From positions 1 through 41,331 of IMG/VR virus record IMGVR_UViG_3300031803_000003: 41,331 nucleotides of DNA; one strand, 5' to 3'. Below are positions 1,486 to 9,374 of this stretch, in pieces; position 1 is the first letter of the stretch, and each line of letters begins with the position of its first letter. The DNA is from a virus. Made by a program: the position numbers and the translations under genes. The notes under the pieces were generated by a model. That model was not told the DNA's origin, ran no database searches, and saw only the letters and a program-made list of their open reading frames with translations.

Positions 1486-2994
1486 TTATACATCTTCCTC
1501 AGGTTCTTCTTCGCCTTCGGCTGGAGCTTCGCTACTAATTTGCTTATCAATCATTTCAATATCTTCGTGAGACTGTCGAAGAATATTCTTTCGGAGCCAC
1601 TCTTTCGAGAAATACTCACCCTTGAATTCTTCCATATCCCGAAGTAGTTCAACTCGACTTCGGAGTATTTCAGTTTCTTGAAGTTCAATAAAATGTGTAT
1701 CCTTCTGCCAATCGAAATAGATATTAGGCCTAAAATCTTCCCAATCTTCTGCTGTTACTACACCCTTCAATCGAAGCTGTGTCTCCAAAAGACTCAAGAA
1801 TAGTTGACCAAACCTACTTCGCAGTCGAGTAACAAATTTTCCAAACTTGACCTCGTCTCGCGTGATTTCAGCAGAACGACCAATATTAAACCCACCCTCT
1901 TGTTCCAGTCTAGATGCAGGAACATTCATGGCCTTATAGAGCTTCCTTCTGAAATACACAATATCTTCAATTTCACCGAGATTCTGCCCACCAGGAAGTG
2001 TTGTGATTTCAGTACCACGCCCGCCTTCGCGTCGAGGTAACCAATAATCCTCTAGCATGGTTCGATGTTCTCGCTCGTCACTAATTTCGCCTGTGCCTGA
2101 ATTATATACAAGACGATTCTTAAATTTAGTCATGATGTCGCGCAAGTATTGTTCGGCTTTGATCTTGGGAAGATTTCCTACATCAACATAGAAAATTCTT
2201 CGTTCAGGTGCGCGAGCAATACGATAAATGACAACAGCATCTTCTAGCATCTTTAGTTGGTTGTAAGGTTTGATGGCCTTGTGGAGATGAGAAATAATCA
2301 TCGCTTTTCTGGCGTCTAACAAACCACAATGCGTATAGCAAACACTATCCTTGGCAATTTTAATTCCGTTACCGCCGCCCTTTTGGTCTAGCCCTCGTTC
2401 ATTATAAATGAAATATTCTGCTCCGTTTGTTGTCACAGGAATATTCTGACCATCTCCAGACTTTATGCCAACTTTCTTAATGTGCTTTACTTTGCGTATT
2501 TTTCGGGGGTCAATATAACGAAGCTCTTGAATGCCTTTCTTGGGATTATCGACATCAATAATGATATGATAATACAATCGCCCATCTACATACCATCTCC
2601 GGAATGTGTCATAGCATTGATTTCCAAAATCAAGAAGGGTTAAGATTTCAATAAATTCGTTTTGAATTTTTGTTTTGATCGAAGAAGATTGTTCCAAATG
2701 GTCCAGGACAATATCAACTGGACCCCTTCCAACGCTAGTGACAATTGCCTCATTGACAATATCATCAACAGCATATTCAGCCTCAGGATACATTACCATT
2801 TCACGATACCGAGTGATTAACTCAGCTTCATTTTTAACGGCACCCTCAATATCAAGATAGGTGCCATACGCTCCCGCAAGCGGGGAGATTTGTAAGGCAC
2901 CCTCTAGGTTTTCTTTTTCAGCGAATGATTGAATTTTGGCGGGATTTTCTTCATCTTCCCGACCAATAGTAAAACCGAATAGTTTAACAGCCAT
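1486..2994 (-). CDS. 20: Portal vertex protein gp20
   Basis: A 502-aa protein (T4 gp20 is 524 aa) that forms the dodecameric ring through which DNA enters and leaves the head; it nucleates prohead assembly and docks the terminase. The N-terminal third carries the typical T4-like portal pattern YREMVMYPEAEYAVDDIVNEAIV (residues about 64-86), followed by YYHIIIDVDNPKKGIQELRYIDPRKIRK (about 142-170) and IYRIARAPERRIFYVDVGNLPK in the crown/stem region. The last 12 residues are acidic. The start uses an AGGA site about 10 bases upstream. Its own late promoter lies at 3067-3074, followed by a strong leader hairpin. Order tube, portal, core, protease is canonical. Confidence 0.95.
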   Translation of the reverse strand: MAVKLFGFTIGREDEENPAKIQSFAEKENLEGALQISPLAGAYGTYLDIEGAVKNEAELITRYREMVMYPEAEYAVDDIVNEAIVTSVGRGPVDIVLDHLEQSSSIKTKIQNEFIEILTLLDFGNQCYDTFRRWYVDGRLYYHIIIDVDNPKKGIQELRYIDPRKIRKVKHIKKVGIKSGDGQNIPVTTNGAEYFIYNERGLDQKGGGNGIKIAKDSVCYTHCGLLDARKAMIISHLHKAIKPYNQLKMLEDAVVIYRIARAPERRIFYVDVGNLPKIKAEQYLRDIMTKFKNRLVYNSGTGEISDEREHRTMLEDYWLPRREGGRGTEITTLPGGQNLGEIEDIVYFRRKLYKAMNVPASRLEQEGGFNIGRSAEITRDEVKFGKFVTRLRSRFGQLFLSLLETQLRLKGVVTAEDWEDFRPNIYFDWQKDTHFIELQETEILRSRVELLRDMEEFKGEYFSKEWLRKNILRQSHEDIEMIDKQISSEAPAEGEEEPEEDV

Positions 2995-3030
2995 AGTCTA
3001 GAATCCTATATTTACGAAGTAAAGGTAAGT

Positions 3031-3060
3031 GGTGTGGATAGACATGTTTCTACCCACACC
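3031..3060 (-). promoter_or_regulatory. Strong leader hairpin between late promoter and gp20
   Basis: An 11-bp stem (GGTGTGGGTAG pairing with CTATCCACACC, one G-T pair) with an 8-base loop. On the minus strand it begins 7 bases after the TATAAATA box, so it would sit at or very near the 5' end of the gp20 transcript. There is no T tract after it, which argues against a simple intrinsic terminator. It could instead protect the 5' end of the mRNA or mark the 3' end of readthrough gp19 mRNA. Confidence 0.6.
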
Positions 3061-3066
3061 TCAACC

Positions 3067-3074
3067 CTATTTAT
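3067..3074 (-). promoter_or_regulatory. T4-type late promoter for gp20
   Basis: Minus-strand TATAAATA in the gap between the gp19 stop and the gp20 start, 73 bases upstream of the gp20 ATG. Confidence 0.75.
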
Positions 3075-3082
3075 ATATTCAC

Positions 3083-3622
3083 TTAGGACGTAATTCCGGG
3101 AGTCTGCCAGAAATCATACTGCCATGTACATGTAAATTCTTCAAGTGCATCATTTGTTTCCCAAGCCAGATCAATTGGGGCAAGAACCGAAGGCCACATG
3201 TTTACAATAGTTACTCTCTTAATCTCTTCGCCAGCCTTTCCATAATGAATAACATCTGCTGTGGAATGATAGTTAATTGGATTACCTCCTGCTTCACGAA
3301 TATTCCCTGAATGAGAATTTATAGAATTCATCCAAGTCTGAATTGCGTTGTATACAGAAAAATCCTCATCATTAATAACTGTCGTAGTCCACTCTGGGAA
3401 GGTTCGATTGCCTGCAAGTTTGATTGTTCTACCAAAATATGGCATTTCAACCATCCCAAGATCCGAACCAGGCATCTGGGCCCCCTTACAGGTAAAGGTC
3501 ATCTTGGTCCCGGCCGCTCCTGGATTGGCAACTGAGGGGAATGGCATCACCACTTCAAACAGATTGGGGCGAGCCCCTCCGCCTGTCAATTGCGCCCTAA
3601 TATCGTTTACGTTAAAAGGCAT
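3083..3622 (-). CDS. 19: Tail tube protein gp19
   Basis: A 179-aa protein, close to the 163 aa of T4 gp19, which stacks as hexameric rings to form the inner tail tube through which DNA passes. The N-terminus MPFNVNDIRAQLTGGGARPNLFEVVMPFP is the typical marine T4-like tube start, and the C-terminal half contains the expected beta-rich core and a terminal TCTWQYDFW-type strand. It sits immediately downstream of the sheath gene, as in T4. An AAGGAG ribosome site precedes the ATG, and a TATAAATA box lies 38 bases upstream at 3660-3667. No oddities seen. Confidence 0.93.
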   Translation of the reverse strand: MPFNVNDIRAQLTGGGARPNLFEVVMPFPSVANPGAAGTKMTFTCKGAQMPGSDLGMVEMPYFGRTIKLAGNRTFPEWTTTVINDEDFSVYNAIQTWMNSINSHSGNIREAGGNPINYHSTADVIHYGKAGEEIKRVTIVNMWPSVLAPIDLAWETNDALEEFTCTWQYDFWQTPGITS

Positions 3623-3667: not shown

Positions 3668-5845
3668 CTAGAACTTCCCAACAACCTCTTCAAAGTCAAC
3701 ACCCGTGCGGACTGCAACGAAGTTTAATTGAATGAAGTTAATTGAGCGAGCAGGCTTGATGTAAATATCACCAATAAACTCGTTTCGATCAATAACTTCG
3801 CCTGTGTTGTTCGATTCGTCACAGACAACCTTGAAATCAAAGATGCCCCTTCGCCCTTGCACATCGCGGAGGAAAGGTTCTACCATATTCACGAATTGTG
3901 AACGAGTAAATTCATCATTGAACTCAAAGAGTGTGAACTTGGCTGCTGTTGCAATGGCCTTTTCTAGTACAATAAAGAGTCTTCGTACATTAATTCGGTC
4001 AAATGCGCTAGGTTTAGCCTGGAGCGTCTTATCACCGAACAGGACAGTACCTTGCCCAGGAATAGTAACAACAGGATTGATACCATTTTTGTAAAGCTCA
4101 TCGCGATGCGCCTTCTGAGGATTCCATGCGAGTCGGACAACATTCTTGATGTGCCCACGATTGAATCCCGCTGGTGACCACCATGGGTCACGAGACTCGT
4201 CTGTTCGGACACAAAGCCCTGCAATGTCACCATTCAGAGGCACCCAGCGATATTTGTCGTTGAACTTATCATACTGATACTTCCAACCACTATCCATGAA
4301 GCCATATGAACTACTCAGGCTGTTAATACCCTCGCTGCCTGGATTATTTAGGCGATAATCCTTGACAGCGGTTGTCTTTTGTGAAAGCGTATCCGAAGCA
4401 TTAGTAACATCAGTCTTGCGTGGCGAAATGAATGCAACACAATCTTTGCGGGCTTCGGCAATAGATTCAACGATGTACTTGGAAACAGTACCATCATGAG
4501 CACCACCAAGAATCATTGAAATGTCTATTTCTTCTGGATCTGAAAACATATCATATCCAAGTATGAATGCTGCTGGAGTAGTTGCATAGCCATTGTTGCC
4601 GCTGTGTAGTGTTATGCTATCTGGCATCCAAAGATGCTGATCATCAGGCGAGGACGCGCCTCGTGAGTCTGCGCCTTCGATAAACTCAAAAGATTCGACA
4701 GTATCTCCTATGACGCCAGCGACATATGCAGTATTTCCCCATTCGCGAGAAACTACACCAGCAGATTCGGTCGTAGCATCGGCTAGTGTTGAGTTGGGTG
4801 GGTTGCACCATCGAATATACTTGGAGTTTTGATTAATAACTTCTCCATAATAATTGGAGCTTCCGTCCTCAGCCTTTGCATCCCGAGCCTTTGATACATT
4901 AGGATAAGTTTCAAGAACTTGCCCTTTAGTGCCCGAAATCAAACCAGTTGCATCAGAGACAGCAATGTGAATTTCGTCATTGGCCGAGCCCCGTGCTGCT
5001 GAATATACCGAGGTGCCCGGAGCTTGGTCAAAGTTACCATAGAACTCCCACTTTCGGTTGATTCCGACATTGATTGCATCTGACGGAACGGCTTTATTCA
5101 ATTTTGCTGAAACATTATTTTTTACATTATCAGGACCAGTTCCCTCGGGGAATGAAACAATCTTAAAAGTTCCTGATGGTGGTGAGTAGACTGTGAAGTC
5201 CGCACCATCACCGGTGTTTTTAACAACAGCTAGTGTTTCAGCAATATCGGCGTCGGTAGCAGCTCTAAACGAAATAACATCACCAATATGGAAGTTAGTA
5301 TTACCATGAAGTTGAATAGTAGTTGAACCGTCGGTTGTGTTTGCAGTATCATTACAAACAATATTACTAAACTGCCCTGGATGGGAATCACAAATAGAGA
5401 CACGAATGTTATTTCCTAGGTCTCCAGGAAAACGAGCCGCCCATAGGCCAGCGTCGGTTACCGTAAGCGATCCTTCAAGGATTCCGACGCCGGTGGCTTG
5501 GTCTGCGAAATCTGCATCATTCCTGATGAGAACTCCACTCAGCGATGCAGCGGTATCGCGCTTTGAAATAGCATTATTTGCCAACCCAGTAGTTACACGA
5601 ACCGTATGCAGCTTGTTTCCATAGTCCAGGAAGTTTGATGCCGTAAACCAATGTTCGGACGTATCGCCATCCGGCTTACCAAAAGTGCTAACCAACACTT
5701 CTTGATTGTTGACTAAGGTGATTTCGTCCACAGGACCCCAACTGAATGAACCAACAAATGCTGTGTCTGTAGTAGCTACAGCAGGAATAATTGTGGTCAG
5801 ATCAATTTCTGAAACATTTACACCCGGTGATAGTTGAAAAGGCAT
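3668..5845 (-). CDS. 18: Contractile tail sheath protein gp18
   Basis: A 725-aa protein (T4 gp18 is 659 aa) that forms the contractile sheath around the tail tube. The N-terminus MPFQLSPGVNVSEIDLTTIIP is the conserved sheath start, followed by FVGSFSWGPVDEITLVNNQEVLVSTFG. The middle (about residues 110-400) is the variable, surface-exposed region expected to carry protrusion domains. The C-terminal 130 residues contain the conserved inner domain: ALFEFN-type segment, FVNMVEPFLRDVQGRRGI, then IYIKPARSINFIQLNFVAVRTGVDF that forms the mesh with neighbouring subunits. It has its own late promoter (5920-5927) and an AGGAG ribosome site. Confidence 0.96.
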   Translation of the reverse strand: MPFQLSPGVNVSEIDLTTIIPAVATTDTAFVGSFSWGPVDEITLVNNQEVLVSTFGKPDGDTSEHWFTASNFLDYGNKLHTVRVTTGLANNAISKRDTAASLSGVLIRNDADFADQATGVGILEGSLTVTDAGLWAARFPGDLGNNIRVSICDSHPGQFSNIVCNDTANTTDGSTTIQLHGNTNFHIGDVISFRAATDADIAETLAVVKNTGDGADFTVYSPPSGTFKIVSFPEGTGPDNVKNNVSAKLNKAVPSDAINVGINRKWEFYGNFDQAPGTSVYSAARGSANDEIHIAVSDATGLISGTKGQVLETYPNVSKARDAKAEDGSSNYYGEVINQNSKYIRWCNPPNSTLADATTESAGVVSREWGNTAYVAGVIGDTVESFEFIEGADSRGASSPDDQHLWMPDSITLHSGNNGYATTPAAFILGYDMFSDPEEIDISMILGGAHDGTVSKYIVESIAEARKDCVAFISPRKTDVTNASDTLSQKTTAVKDYRLNNPGSEGINSLSSSYGFMDSGWKYQYDKFNDKYRWVPLNGDIAGLCVRTDESRDPWWSPAGFNRGHIKNVVRLAWNPQKAHRDELYKNGINPVVTIPGQGTVLFGDKTLQAKPSAFDRINVRRLFIVLEKAIATAAKFTLFEFNDEFTRSQFVNMVEPFLRDVQGRRGIFDFKVVCDESNNTGEVIDRNEFIGDIYIKPARSINFIQLNFVAVRTGVDFEEVVGKF

Positions 5846-5939: not shown

Positions 5940-7154
5940 TTAATGAAATTTAGGATCTGGAGTAGAATCTTTCTCAAAATCATTTCCCCATAACCACTTA
6001 TCGTCACCACGGTCTACGGCCACTTCTTCGATCACAGGGCCCGAGTCAATAAACCCAAAGGGCAACAATTCTTCTTCTTCGACCTTTGATTTGTCAGCCA
6101 AAATGCGTTTTCTGGCATCCACACTAGTCAGGTCTTTGAAATAGGGTTGAGTTGTGAGCCAACAAAATAAAACGAGTGTCATCACCAAGTCGTCATTATG
6201 CCCAGGCTCAGCCTCATAAGAATATCCACGAGAAACAAATGAAGTCAGTTCGGCAATGGTGTCAAAGTCTTCGATAATTAATTTATCACTTTCGACAAGG
6301 TTCTTGAGATTGAGACATCCTACTTGCTTTACTTTCTTGGTTGTCTTGATTCCCATTTGAGCCTGCCCTATACCAAAACCACCACCAAGAACTTGCCCTG
6401 CGCGCCCCCGTTGTGTGACCATTAGCATGTTGTCATATTCTAGGTCATAATGCAAAATGTCAGCCACTTGCTGCCCAATGTCATTGATTTCGACAAGAAT
6501 AAATGCTTCATTGTATTTCAGAGCAGCATTATGGATAACTGTGGGATAGGTTAATGGGGGAATTGTTGCATTGCGATACTTGGCCACCTGTTTATATGGA
6601 AATTCTGACGAATCAATGATCGAAAACGCAGAATAGTCCAGCCCTTCACCGTGTGATACATCGACAACTAGTGTATAAACATGCCCTTCTTGGGGTTCTT
6701 CATAGATGTCCATGTCTCCCAAAACTATAACCGGGTCTTTGAATGGCATATTCTTTAGCTTCGTTGCGTTAATCAGAGTATTAATTGAGCCGACAAAATC
6801 ACAATTATGGGAAAGAACGCCATTGGTGTAATATGTATGATCCTTTCCTGCATTAACGGCATCATACAATTCAATGAGGCCATCTACAATCTCGGCATAT
6901 ACGATTTCTATGAATCCGGATTTGGCCTGGACCTTATCTCCAACCTTTAGGTCCATCGCCAAGATAATATCCGAATTGACATCGAATAGGGGATGTCTAG
7001 GAGAACACTTCAACTCCACTCCATCCGATCCAATCAGATGCACACACCAGTCACGTTCGATCTTGTTTACTGCATAGAAATGCTCAAATCCGTTCGGAGT
7101 TTCTATTTTATGATTTGGTGTGTTCTGTATTATGGTCTTAGGAAGTCTAGGCAT
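5940..7154 (-). CDS. 17: C-intein fused to terminase large subunit C-terminal half (gp17-C, nuclease domain)
   Basis: A 404-aa protein. Residues 1-117 are a C-terminal split-intein fragment ending in GVLSHN; residue 118 is Cys (+1), where the terminase resumes with CDFVGS. Residues 118-404 are the gp17 RNase H-like headful nuclease domain: D165 and D173 in DVSHGEGLDYSAF and D321/D322 in GHNDDLVMTLVLFCW correspond to the metal-binding Asp positions of T4 gp17. After trans-splicing with residues 1-266 of the upstream gene, a 553-aa terminase results, near normal family length (T4: 610). The ATG at 7154 lies inside the end of the endonuclease gene (25-base overlap, different frame), with only a weak AGAG site, so translation may be coupled. 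Translated alone it lacks the ATPase domain, so splicing should be needed for function. Confidence 0.93.
   Translation of the reverse strand: MPRLPKTIIQNTPNHKIETPNGFEHFYAVNKIERDWCVHLIGSDGVELKCSPRHPLFDVNSDIILAMDLKVGDKVQAKSGFIEIVYAEIVDGLIELYDAVNAGKDHTYYTNGVLSHNCDFVGSINTLINATKLKNMPFKDPVIVLGDMDIYEEPQEGHVYTLVVDVSHGEGLDYSAFSIIDSSEFPYKQVAKYRNATIPPLTYPTVIHNAALKYNEAFILVEINDIGQQVADILHYDLEYDNMLMVTQRGRAGQVLGGGFGIGQAQMGIKTTKKVKQVGCLNLKNLVESDKLIIEDFDTIAELTSFVSRGYSYEAEPGHNDDLVMTLVLFCWLTTQPYFKDLTSVDARKRILADKSKVEEEELLPFGFIDSGPVIEEVAVDRGDDKWLWGNDFEKDSTPDPKFH
6804..7154 (-). other. C-terminal split intein fragment (IntC, 117 aa)
   Basis: Unusually long IntC carrying block B (ELKCSPRHPLF around residues 47-57, with Ser at the position of the usual TxxH Thr), a block containing AMDLKVGDKV (66-75), and blocks F/G (LIELYDAV, HTYYTNGVLSHN). 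The penultimate His116, terminal Asn117 and +1 Cys118 are the standard splicing residues. The N-terminal pattern (IETPNGF...NKIER) resembles the C-fragment of the AceL-TerL intein as I remember it. The fragment contains two Cys (37 and 50). Confidence 0.9.
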
Positions 7155-8104
7155 TTTTGAATCTCTTTTTGTGGGTCTTTAATGTAATCCTGCTCGTTTA
7201 TTCGGAGTGTCATATATCCCTTGCTCTCTAAAATAGCATCCCGGACTTCGTCCTTTGCTGTTCTACCCAATATAGAATGCCAATATGTGCCATCAAATTC
7301 AATATTTCTGGTACCCAACACAAAGTCCAAATAGTAGCAATGTTTGTTTGTTTGTTCTGGTCCGAACATTTTTATATCATTTTTGTTGACCCGGACACGA
7401 ACCTCCGAATTTAAATCACCAAAGCGAGCCAAAGGTCTATATTCCCCCTCTAGGCTGTTGTAAATTTCCCAAAATAATTCTTGTGAAATTTTCGACGACC
7501 CAAGAAATACACTACTCATGTTTTGAGCATATCCCTTTCGAGTTATTTGATGTGTACTGTTGCCATACCCCTTAGTGACCGTATAAAATTTTAATGCTTG
7601 ACCCGTTTCTAGGCATTTTGGCAAATCCCCTTCACAAAAATCATTAATGATTCTATATATTCGTTCCGTCAGTTTATCGGATTGTAGAATATGCGTTGAG
7701 GTGTGGTGTATAATACTTGCGCGTAAATTTGGATCACCCCACGTTATACCAGGAACAATTCCGTGGTTATATTCATCAACGAATACCGCACATTTATCTT
7801 TGGTTGTTTGGGCGTCATATATTACTTCAGGAATTTCCATTCCCTGGTATTTGATCCGGCTGGTGATTGTGTTTGTTTTCACAGAGAAACATTTCGCAAT
7901 CTCAAATGGCGATTTTCCTTCGGACAGCATGTCCTTTAAGCCGGTATTATCAATACCTTTGAAATAATTGGAAACTAGGCCGTGCTCCTTTAACCACCTA
8001 CGAACTATTTTACGCCCAACACCATATTTCTTAGCAATCCGAACCTGGCTAGTGCCACTCAATTCAAACTGAAGTTCCGCCTTTGTTCCTGGATAGCTCG
8101 TCAT
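7130..8104 (-). CDS. Free-standing Vsr-like (EDxHD) homing endonuclease inside the fractured terminase gene
   Basis: A 324-aa protein encoded between the two terminase halves. The N-terminal part has two helix-turn-helix-like segments, about residues 17-41 (TSQVRIAKKYGVGRKIVRRW) and 60-87 (GKSPFEIAKCFSVKTNTITSRI), expected for site-specific DNA binding. The C-terminal domain (about 205-320) shows the EDxHD nuclease pattern of Vsr-type homing enzymes: Glu209/213 in SQELFWEIYN, Asp260 in YYLDFVL, EFDGTYWH with His276, Asp289 in KDEVRDA, and a closing LRI strand. Such enzymes cut alleles lacking the insert and drive its spread. The start overlaps the N-intein end by 41 bases; AGGAG (8111-8115) supports it. 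A late promoter and hairpin lie just upstream within N-intein coding sequence. It lacks intein splicing motifs and is not fused to either half. Confidence 0.88.
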   Translation of the reverse strand: MTSYPGTKAELQFELSGTSQVRIAKKYGVGRKIVRRWLKEHGLVSNYFKGIDNTGLKDMLSEGKSPFEIAKCFSVKTNTITSRIKYQGMEIPEVIYDAQTTKDKCAVFVDEYNHGIVPGITWGDPNLRASIIHHTSTHILQSDKLTERIYRIINDFCEGDLPKCLETGQALKFYTVTKGYGNSTHQITRKGYAQNMSSVFLGSSKISQELFWEIYNSLEGEYRPLARFGDLNSEVRVRVNKNDIKMFGPEQTNKHCYYLDFVLGTRNIEFDGTYWHSILGRTAKDEVRDAILESKGYMTLRINEQDYIKDPQKEIQKCLDFLRP

Positions 8105-8975
8105 ATAATTCTCCTATAGCAATTTCCTGGGGACCATGTCCCTTGTCTATATTTATAATAGTTGATGCGCTAACCGATTCAAATTCCTGCGCGAATTGTT
8201 CCTTGCTCGTATTTCTGATTGTCTCTTCTTTCCACTGTTCGTCACGCCCCGGAACTTCACTCCAATGAACCTCGACAGGTTTGTATAGATTCTTTTTTTC
8301 TTGTGCATCCGACCACAATTTATAGAAGTGGTTCATTCCGCAAGGGGTACTGACGATAATGACTTTTGTAGTTTTACCGGAAGAAATTGTTGGATAGACA
8401 GAACTAAAGAATTCGTCTGCAATATTCTTAGGAACAAACGCAAACTCGTCAAGCAGAATCATGTTGTATGTTCCACCACGAACTGCACTAGAAGAAGTCG
8501 ATGCTGCAACAATTTTTGACCCATTCTCTAATTGCATGTCCCCACGATTCCATACCTTGATTCCTTGCTGTAGAAATGGGGGGAGATTCTCATAGGCCAA
8601 CTGTAGTCTGCCTAGAATATCACGGGCCAATGACCCCTTGTTTGCAAGGATGGCAATATTGACATCTTCGTTGAATAGAATATAGTGTAGAAAATAAGAA
8701 ACAACAGTCGTGGTCTTGCCTGACTGTCTCGGAAGTTTGGCAATGGCAAAGCGATTGTTATGAATCGTGTTTATAATTTTCTCTTGAAAGTCATACATGG
8801 TAAAGGGAACAAGCCCTTCATCTACATTGACAATTTTTACATAGTTGAGAATAAAATAAACAGGATCTTTAGAACACTTGATGTATTCTGAAATCTGGTC
8901 TTTTGTGAACTCTTCGTGTGTTCCGGCCTTCTTGAGAAGGGGATTCCCAAGATAGCCTGATTGTTGAGTAGCCAT
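8064..8975 (-). CDS. 17: Terminase large subunit N-terminal half (gp17-N, ATPase domain) fused to N-intein
   Basis: A 303-aa protein. Residues 1-266 are the packaging-motor ATPase of gp17: Walker A at 81-89 (LPRQSGKTT, Arg/Gln variant as in T4), Walker B at 172-177 (MILLDE), and coupling motif around 206-211 (IIVSTP). The sequence reads up to KEQFAQEFE, which continues directly into CDFVGS of the downstream gene if the intein is removed. Residues 267-303 are the N-intein fragment, beginning with Ser267. In T4 the same region runs unbroken into the nuclease domain. An AAGGAG site precedes the ATG; the gene lies 6 bases after gp16. The last 12 residues overlap the endonuclease start in another frame. 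Confidence 0.94.
   Translation of the reverse strand: MATQQSGYLGNPLLKKAGTHEEFTKDQISEYIKCSKDPVYFILNYVKIVNVDEGLVPFTMYDFQEKIINTIHNNRFAIAKLPRQSGKTTTVVSYFLHYILFNEDVNIAILANKGSLARDILGRLQLAYENLPPFLQQGIKVWNRGDMQLENGSKIVAASTSSSAVRGGTYNMILLDEFAFVPKNIADEFFSSVYPTISSGKTTKVIIVSTPCGMNHFYKLWSDAQEKKNLYKPVEVHWSEVPGRDEQWKEETIRNTSKEQFAQEFESVSASTIINIDKGHGPQEIAIGELYDELSRNKGGTSV
8111..8115 (-). promoter_or_regulatory. Strong Shine-Dalgarno of the homing endonuclease
   Basis: AGGAG six bases before the ATG at 8104, lying inside the N-intein coding frame. It decides the endonuclease start. Confidence 0.7.
8130..8142 (-). promoter_or_regulatory. Hairpin in the endonuclease leader
   Basis: Perfect 5-bp GC-rich stem GGGAC/GTCCC around a three-base loop, 8 bases after the embedded TATAAATA box and 26 bases before the endonuclease ATG. 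It lies in N-intein codons, so the sequence carries a protein and a possible RNA structure. Confidence 0.5.
8150..8157 (-). promoter_or_regulatory. T4-type late promoter embedded in N-intein coding sequence
   Basis: TATAAATA formed by the Ile-Ile-Asn-Ile codons (intein residues 7-10), 46 bases upstream of the endonuclease ATG. It would give the endonuclease, and possibly the C-half, its own late transcript. Confidence 0.65.
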
Positions 8976-8981
8976 GATAGA

Positions 8982-9374
8982 TTACTCCTTATCGCCGCCA
9001 ATATTTAGGTCTAGCTTACCTTTTAGTAACTTCTGGAGGTCATGCGTACTCCCAACAAACAGCGCATTGGTGACATTCTTGGGGCCAGAATCAGTTTTTT
9101 TCAAGCCCTTGATGTCTTTTTGCAAGTCGATAAGCTGACGATTGACATCGGCCACATTCTTGATGATTTGCCCGACAACCTCATAGGCTCTAGGATGCTC
9201 GCTTTCTTTGGCTAGTTCAAGAATGCCGTCGAGAGCCTCCGACCCTTTCTCAATAATTGCTTTTAGATTGTCTCGGGTGTATTCGTAGTCCGTGTCAAGG
9301 TCTTTTGCAATTTCAATTTCACTAGTAGGAAGAAGTTCTGCGGGCAGAACTTCCACAAGTTTTTCATCACTCAT
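8982..9374 (-). CDS. 16: Terminase small subunit gp16
   Basis: A 130-aa, mostly helical protein (T4 gp16 is 164 aa) that recognises concatemeric DNA, forms an oligomeric ring and stimulates gp17. The central signature DYEYTRDNLKAIIEKGSEALDGILELAKESEHPRAYEVVGQIIKNVADVN (about residues 29-78) is the coiled-coil helical core typical of T4-like small terminases. The ends are acidic (start) and Lys/Gly-rich (GSTHDLQKLLKGKLDLN). Its ATG overlaps the gp15 stop as TAATG, indicating coupling; a GGAG lies about 13 bases upstream. It sits immediately before the terminase N-half, as in T4. Confidence 0.9.
   Translation of the reverse strand: MSDEKLVEVLPAELLPTSEIEIAKDLDTDYEYTRDNLKAIIEKGSEALDGILELAKESEHPRAYEVVGQIIKNVADVNRQLIDLQKDIKGLKKTDSGPKNVTNALFVGSTHDLQKLLKGKLDLNIGGDKE

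What the first reader, a model, noticed from the sequence alone, without database searches (positions are those of the whole stretch)
5940..8975. Terminase gene fractured by a split intein with a free-standing Vsr-like endonuclease between the halves
The sequence shows gp17 ATPase residues 1-266 ending QEFE, a 37-residue IntN, a separate 324-aa EDxHD nuclease gene, then a 117-residue IntC ending SHN followed by CDFVGS and the gp17 nuclease domain. Joining the exteins gives a seamless 553-aa terminase. Fractured genes with a split intein around a stand-alone endonuclease are known from marine metagenomic phage loci (mostly DNA metabolism enzymes) and a TerL split intein (AceL-TerL) is known. 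Here the complete cassette is seen inside an otherwise intact T4-like structural cluster. Virion packaging, a step essential for progeny, would depend on protein trans-splicing.
Basis: partly seen in the sequence, partly recalled or inferred. Interest (0 to 1): 0.93.

Follow-up and report, generated by a model that had tools for sequence, protein, structure and literature searches.

The report
Split-intein DNA-packaging gene in a phage
In this T4-like phage fragment the DNA-packaging motor gene is broken in two by a mobile element that carries a DNA-cutting enzyme, and the two protein halves are almost certainly rejoined by a split intein; the arrangement is real but of a kind already known, its less usual points being a serine as the first catalytic residue and signs that the element swaps parts with a sister element.

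Summary
On the minus strand, gp17 residues 1-266 plus a 37-aa IntN (8975-8064), a free-standing 324-aa EDxHD endonuclease gene (8104-7130) and an IntC plus gp17 nuclease domain (7154-5940) lie between genes 16 and 18. Joined exteins give 553 aa, 98.4% identical to an uninterrupted gp17 in a near relative (L008). IntC is homologous to the consensus atypical TerL split intein CatC, and the endonuclease domain to I-Bth0305I.

It is a new member of a known kind. A review (PMC11766414) describes a tested TerL split intein, GOS-TerL, with the same IntN length (37 aa), IntC of 115 aa, and the same Ser1/Cys+1 nucleophiles. GenBank already annotates a fractured gp17 in Aeromonas phage PX29. A free endonuclease between TerL halves also occurs in Providencia phage PSTRCR_127 and many IMG/VR contigs.

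What is added: Ser1/Cys+1, recently called unique to GOS-TerL, is a recurrent class (18 distinct IntCs here) whose EDxHD enzymes form one clade in this sample (100/100). The window is a mosaic: IntN and endonuclease of that class, IntC closest to a Cys1/GIY-YIG element (L007) at the same site. Trans-splicing itself is inferred, not shown.

The parts
8178..8975 (-). gp17 N-extein, ATPase domain, residues 1-266 (Walker A RQSGKTT at 83, Walker B LLDEF at 174), ending QEFE
   Evidence: Pfam Terminase_6N 2.7e-26; PHROG terminase large subunit 4e-60; dN/dS 0.04 against L008; motif positions
8067..8177 (-). IntN, 37 aa, Ser1, motif A without Gly4 (SVSAST)
   Evidence: Same position as IntN in homologous loci; Ser1 is shared by 18 distinct elements
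7133..8104 (-). Free-standing EDxHD (Vsr-like / DUF559 / MTES_1575) endonuclease, 324 aa: N-terminal HTH region, C-terminal nuclease with D260, E269, D271, H276, D285
   Evidence: Pfam; 3R3P profile match E=1.7e-5; AF2 pLDDT 81.9, fold match 3r3p prob 1.00, TMt 0.62, E=0.027; D260, E269, D271, H276 invariant in 12 homologues, D285 in the 5-sequence set
8105..8129 (-). Shine-Dalgarno-like GGAG before the endonuclease ATG, inside the IntN coding sequence
   Evidence: Sequence caggaaattgctataggagaattat then ATG
6804..7154 (-). IntC, 117 aa, ending ...TNGVLSHN, with own ATG at 7154 (weak SD aaagaga)
   Evidence: CatC 6dsl_B E=1.7e-22, fold match to 6dsl_B TMt 0.79, purifying selection pN 0.22 / pS 0.79 against L007
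5943..6803 (-). gp17 C-extein, 287 aa, Cys+1 (CDFVGS), RNase H-like nuclease domain (VDVS, LVEIND, HNDDL)
   Evidence: Pfam Terminase_6C 2.3e-8; fold match T4 gp17 3cpe E=3.9e-20
8982..9374 (-). gp16, small terminase subunit (upstream neighbour)
   Evidence: PHROG_445 6e-43
3668..5845 (-). gp18, tail sheath (downstream neighbour)
   Evidence: PHROG_23 1.7e-131

Best explanation
A mobile 'fractured gene' element of the GOS-TerL type sits in gp17. Two precursor polypeptides are made: gp17(1-266)-IntN(37 aa) and IntC(117 aa)-gp17(267-553). IntN and IntC associate into a HINT domain; Ser1 attacks the peptide bond after Glu266, the acyl group moves from the Ser oxygen to the Cys+1 sulphur of CDFVGS, the terminal Asn cyclises, and an uninterrupted 553-aa gp17 is released. 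The endonuclease, translated from its own start inside the IntN coding sequence, would cut gp17 alleles lacking the element during co-infection, so that repair copies the whole cassette in. Shown here: gene anatomy, homology, complementary halves, purifying selection, the occupied and empty alleles, and cassette mosaicism. Inferred: splicing, DNA target specificity and homing.
For: Joined exteins equal an uninterrupted gp17 (98.4%, 553 aa, L008) and the insert is absent precisely at QEFE^CDFVGS in L008, L009, L011-L013 and L016. Natural contiguous mini-inteins at the same TerL site (L085, L087, L114, L115, L118) align nearly end to end with joined IntN+IntC (94.6 bits). IntC folds as HINT, closest intein hit CatC. 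IntC is under purifying selection. The review PMC11766414 describes GOS-TerL: Ser1/Cys+1, IntN 37 aa and IntC 115 aa, splicing at 4.6e-3 per s at 30 C. The endonuclease tree puts all Ser1-associated EDxHD enzymes in one clade (100/100), while the nucleophile label changes at least 5 times on the TerL tree, which fits horizontal movement. The element interrupts a gp17 that is 96-99% identical to L008 in the 400 bp on each side of the site, so its arrival postdates that split or the empty allele was restored.
Against: No experiment. Motif A is degenerate, and Ser1 is reported to inactivate the relative AceL-TerL (PMC11766414). The GOS-TerL sequence could not be obtained, so direct homology to it is inferred from lengths, nucleophiles and host gene. 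The IntC start has only a weak Shine-Dalgarno. The endonuclease fold match to 3r3p is suggestive, not strong (E 0.027). The element's DNA target was not tested. The window is a metagenomic contig of unknown host, and no reads were available.
Confidence: 0.93

Rival explanations
1. The halves no longer splice: the degenerate IntN (Ser1, no Gly4) is decayed, and gp17 function comes from the two unspliced domains working together, as in genes-in-pieces enzymes.
For: Motif A departs from consensus, and the NCBIfam intein N-terminal model scores below its cutoff (13.3 against 24.5 bits). A split ribonucleotide reductase that works as two peptides is known (cited in PMC10448857).
Against: Ser1 with a non-Gly position 4 recurs in 18 distinct elements in many TerL lineages, so it is a trait and not decay; IntC is under purifying selection; every catalytic IntC residue is kept (His54, His116, Asn117, Cys118); GOS-TerL of the same type splices.
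Confidence: 0.04
2. Assembly artefact: an uninterrupted gp17 allele and an element-bearing allele were mis-joined in the metagenome.
For: Empty and occupied alleles coexist in related contigs, which is the situation in which chimeras arise.
Against: Both junctions are exact at the codon level, the same junctions occur in L007 and in unrelated contigs from other samples and comparable ones in cultured phages; the endonuclease gene is intact and overlaps both halves.
Confidence: 0.02
3. The insert is a group I or II intron removed from RNA, the endonuclease being its ORF.
For: T4-like phages carry introns with endonuclease genes, and a terminase gene with an intein and an intron was reported in a Campylobacter phage (PMC3322345).
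Against: IntC is a conserved coding sequence with a HINT fold and the joined IntN+IntC matches contiguous mini-inteins at the same site; the coding overlaps leave little room for an intron core. Rfam was not run on this stretch.
Confidence: 0.01

Closest known systems
GOS-TerL split intein (Bachmann and Mootz; described in PMC11766414 and PMC10189870)
   Same: TerL host gene; Ser1/Cys+1; short IntN of 37 aa and IntC of about 115 aa; split after the first helix
   Different: A separate element from another source; sequence identity not measurable here. The genomic context of GOS-TerL and any endonuclease next to it could not be checked
AceL-TerL and consensus CatC (PDB 6dsl)
   Same: Atypical TerL split intein, IntC homologous (E=1.7e-22, 38% identity in the fold match), N-terminal split site
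   Different: Cys1, IntN 25-30 aa; Ser1 inactivates AceL-TerL according to PMC11766414
Aeromonas phage PX29 genes 17A/17B (GU396103)
   Same: gp17 fractured by N- and C-intein parts inside the 15-16-17-18-19-20 cluster
   Different: Cys1; GIY-YIG endonuclease fused in front of the C-intein instead of a free EDxHD gene
Providencia phage PSTRCR_127 TerL locus (MW358927)
   Same: Exact three-gene order: TerL-N+IntN, free-standing endonuclease, IntC+TerL-C
   Different: Cys1; GIY-YIG-like endonuclease (assigned by eye); unannotated as intein
L003 and L004 loci of IMG/VR (other TerL lineage)
   Same: Same site, free-standing EDxHD gene between IntN and IntC
   Different: Cys1; endonuclease of a different EDxHD clade
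Fractured genes with split inteins and a new endonuclease family (Dassa et al. 2009, known from citations; full text not held)
   Same: Split intein halves flanking a free-standing endonuclease of the EDxHD/Vsr-like type (own knowledge of that paper)
   Different: Mostly other host genes, from own knowledge; not compared sequence by sequence

Membership tests
T4-type large terminase gp17 | ATPase domain with Walker A/B plus RNase H-like nuclease domain with acidic triad, across the two halves | tested here: met
Fractured gene with split intein | One gene in two adjacent ORFs, each fused to a complementary intein part, with an endonuclease gene between | tested here: met
   uninterrupted allele in L008
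Atypical TerL split intein (AceL/GOS/Cat) | Insertion in TerL before a Cys+1, IntN of 25-37 aa, IntC homologous to CatC | tested here: met
   37 aa IntN; CatC E=1.7e-22; fold TMt 0.79
GOS-TerL type (Ser1/Cys+1) | Ser at intein position 1 with Cys at +1 | tested here: met
   Sequence and review data
GOS-TerL type (Ser1/Cys+1) | Trans-splicing activity with a Ser1 nucleophile | not testable with these tools
   Needs expression
GOS-TerL type (Ser1/Cys+1) | Sequence homology to GOS-TerL itself | not tested
   The source paper and sequence are not held
Class 1 intein / HINT fold | HINT beta-fold, block B His, block G His-Asn | tested here: met
   His54, His116-Asn117 invariant in 16 homologues; many inteins among fold hits
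EDxHD homing endonuclease | Vsr-like catalytic domain with conserved acidic residues and His, after DNA-binding modules | tested here: met
   3R3P profile E=1.7e-5; fold prob 1.00, TMt 0.62, E=0.027
EDxHD homing endonuclease | Cleavage of the element-free allele and homing | not testable with these tools
   Only indirect: empty sites and tree incongruence

The most novel reading that the evidence does not exclude
Ser1/Cys+1 TerL split inteins are a distinct, horizontally moving class whose IntN travels with its own EDxHD endonuclease clade, and the window arose by exchanging the IntN-plus-endonuclease part of an element while keeping an IntC shared with a Cys1/GIY-YIG element (or L007 did so in the other direction). 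Elements would then change catalytic nucleophile (Ser to Cys or back) in nature by swapping modules, and one IntC lineage would work with either.
Probability: 0.45. Interest if true: 0.55.

Novelty: new member of a known kind. Interest (0 to 1): 0.42.

Why it matters
It turns Ser1/Cys+1 splicing from a single laboratory example (GOS-TerL) into a recurrent natural class with 18 distinct members to test, and gives a natural pair (window and L007) with exteins about 96% identical and IntCs 75% identical but different first nucleophiles. That makes the chemistry of an uphill oxoester-to-thioester step, and IntN/IntC cross-compatibility, directly testable. It also shows phage DNA packaging as a recurrent host function for fractured genes.

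Tried and rejected
Assembly or frameshift artefact: rejected (29 in-frame stops against 29.4 expected, intact endonuclease, same junctions elsewhere). A decayed IntN because of Ser1: rejected as a quirk of this contig, since Ser1 recurs. Novelty of a fractured gp17 in a T4-like cluster: rejected (PX29, PSTRCR_127). Direct comparison with GOS-TerL and reading of Dassa 2009, Thiel 2014 and Bachmann and Mootz 2015: not possible, texts not held. Search for the NX histidine of Ser1 inteins: PMC10189870 says GOS-TerL lacks it; I did not align to PolB16 and draw no conclusion. The Desulfovibrio phage match to the endonuclease was not pursued. Promoters and RNA families were not examined.

Full report
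What is there. The minus strand of the window carries, in T4 order, gp14- and gp15-like genes, gp16 (9374-8982), the interrupted gp17, gp18 (5845-3668), gp19 and the portal gene. gp17 is in two ORFs with an endonuclease ORF between them. The first (8975-8064) is gp17 1-266 plus 37 residues beginning SVSAST; the second (8104-7130) a 324-aa endonuclease; the third (7154-5940) 117 residues ending SHN plus gp17 287 residues from CDFVGS. The ORFs overlap by 41 and 25 nt. The endonuclease ATG is preceded by GGAG inside the IntN coding sequence, the IntC ATG by a weaker AAAGAGA. The gp17 halves share a frame but 29 stops lie between them, as many as chance gives (29.4).

It is a split gene and not an artefact. 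Nine differences in 553 residues separate the joined exteins from the uninterrupted gp17 of L008, none near the junction. L008, L009, L011-L013 and L016 have the empty site. Around the site the window is 96-99% identical to L008 over 400 bp on either side. Substitution in the exteins is strongly purifying (dN/dS 0.04-0.07).

The intein. IntC matches the consensus atypical TerL intein CatC (E=1.7e-22). The predicted structure of the C-half (mean pLDDT 74.7) matches T4 gp17 (E=3.9e-20) and CatC (TM 0.79 on CatC length). Five contigs carry a contiguous mini-intein at the same TerL site, and a profile of these aligns with joined IntN+IntC over nearly the whole length (94.6 bits). IntC is under purifying selection against L007: over the 64 codons before the shared end, pN 0.22 and pS 0.79.

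The endonuclease. Pfam finds MTES_1575 and DUF559 (Vsr-like; MTES_1575 just below its gathering score) and HTH motifs. A profile of five relatives finds I-Bth0305I (E=1.7e-5). The model (pLDDT 81.9) has 3r3p as its best nuclease match, with probability 1.00 and TM 0.62 on the target but E=0.027. D260, E269, D271 and H276 are invariant among 12 relatives. DNA specificity was not tested.

Relatives. Scans of IMG/VR with IntC and with the endonuclease gave a large set of TerL loci interrupted at the same place. Between the halves are EDxHD enzymes, GIY-YIG enzymes, other nucleases or nothing. In some the endonuclease is fused to one half (Vibrio phages VP-1 and Va1); in others it is free (L003, L004, L135). 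Among cultured phages, PX29 is annotated as having a fractured gp17 with N-intein and C-intein parts, PSTRCR_127 has the three-gene form, and kaaroe, growing on E. coli K-12, has a fractured TerL at another site.

Ser1. [quoted passage not shown] PMC11766414 gives GOS-TerL as 37 + 115 aa, splicing at 4.6e-3 per s at 30 C, tolerant of Cys1, while Ser1 inactivates AceL-TerL. The window (37 + 117 aa, Ser1/Cys+1) is of this type. In the present sample 18 distinct IntCs go with Ser1. The sample was gathered partly with the window's own endonuclease and IntC, so frequencies mean nothing, but recurrence does. In 12 of these elements the EDxHD enzymes form one clade apart from those of Cys1 elements (100/100), whereas on a tree of TerL exteins the Ser1/Cys1 label changes at least five times. 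On the short IntC tree it needs three changes.

The mosaic. L007 has 95-97% identical exteins and the same site occupied, but its IntN has Cys1 and its endonuclease is GIY-YIG. Its IntC is 75% identical to the window's and groups with it (99/99). The last 99 nt of the two IntCs are identical, while the C-extein just beyond is 85% identical over its first 100 nt. The simplest reading is exchange of the IntN-plus-endonuclease part in one of the two lineages and recombination within IntC; the direction cannot be told.

Limits. Splicing, cutting and homing were not observed. Key papers (Dassa 2009, Thiel 2014, Bachmann and Mootz 2015) were not readable here; what is said of them comes from citing papers or own knowledge.

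Verdict.

Noticed in passing
L007:2069-4717 with endonuclease ORF 2931-3530: The Cys1 intein frame stays open (882 aa) right through a GIY-YIG ORF in another frame: 0 stops against 7-8 expected from synonymous shuffles (P about 2e-4 or less). It looks like an endonuclease overprinted inside a contiguous intein ORF.
   Followed up: partly
L126:1322-3385 and L131:1323-3386: At a second TerL site (before CIFLDEFAF) a contiguous intein ORF contains an HNH-like ORF of 254/268 aa in another frame: 0 stops against 15.5 and 16.1 expected, none of 5000 shuffles as low. Compare the hidden HNH endonuclease in a phage methylase (PMC11855218), which has no splicing domains.
   Followed up: partly
L129:2670-3839: A TnpB (OrfB_IS605, Cas12f1-like) gene lies between the TerL intein halves, replacing the middle of the endonuclease gene seen in L132; the ends of that gene remain on both sides.
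   Followed up: partly
L055, L056, L057, L060, L067, L079, L086, L117: TerL halves with IntN and IntC separated by only 12-165 bp without an endonuclease: split inteins that persist without a visible homing gene.
   Followed up: no
L051 (Vibrio phage VP-1, MH363700): TerL carries two inteins: a contiguous mini-intein in the Walker A region (RQSGK^C...SHN^TT) and the fractured one with a GIY-YIG domain behind IntN.
   Followed up: no
L216 (Campylobacter phage CPX, JN132397): An IntC plus TerL C-half gene stands next to a neck gene with no N-half upstream in the stretch shown; the N-half may lie elsewhere in the genome.
   Followed up: no
L002 and L043: Insertions at the Walker A site of TerL as well, in L002 with an EDxHD gene between the halves, so gp17 has at least three insertion sites.
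   Followed up: no
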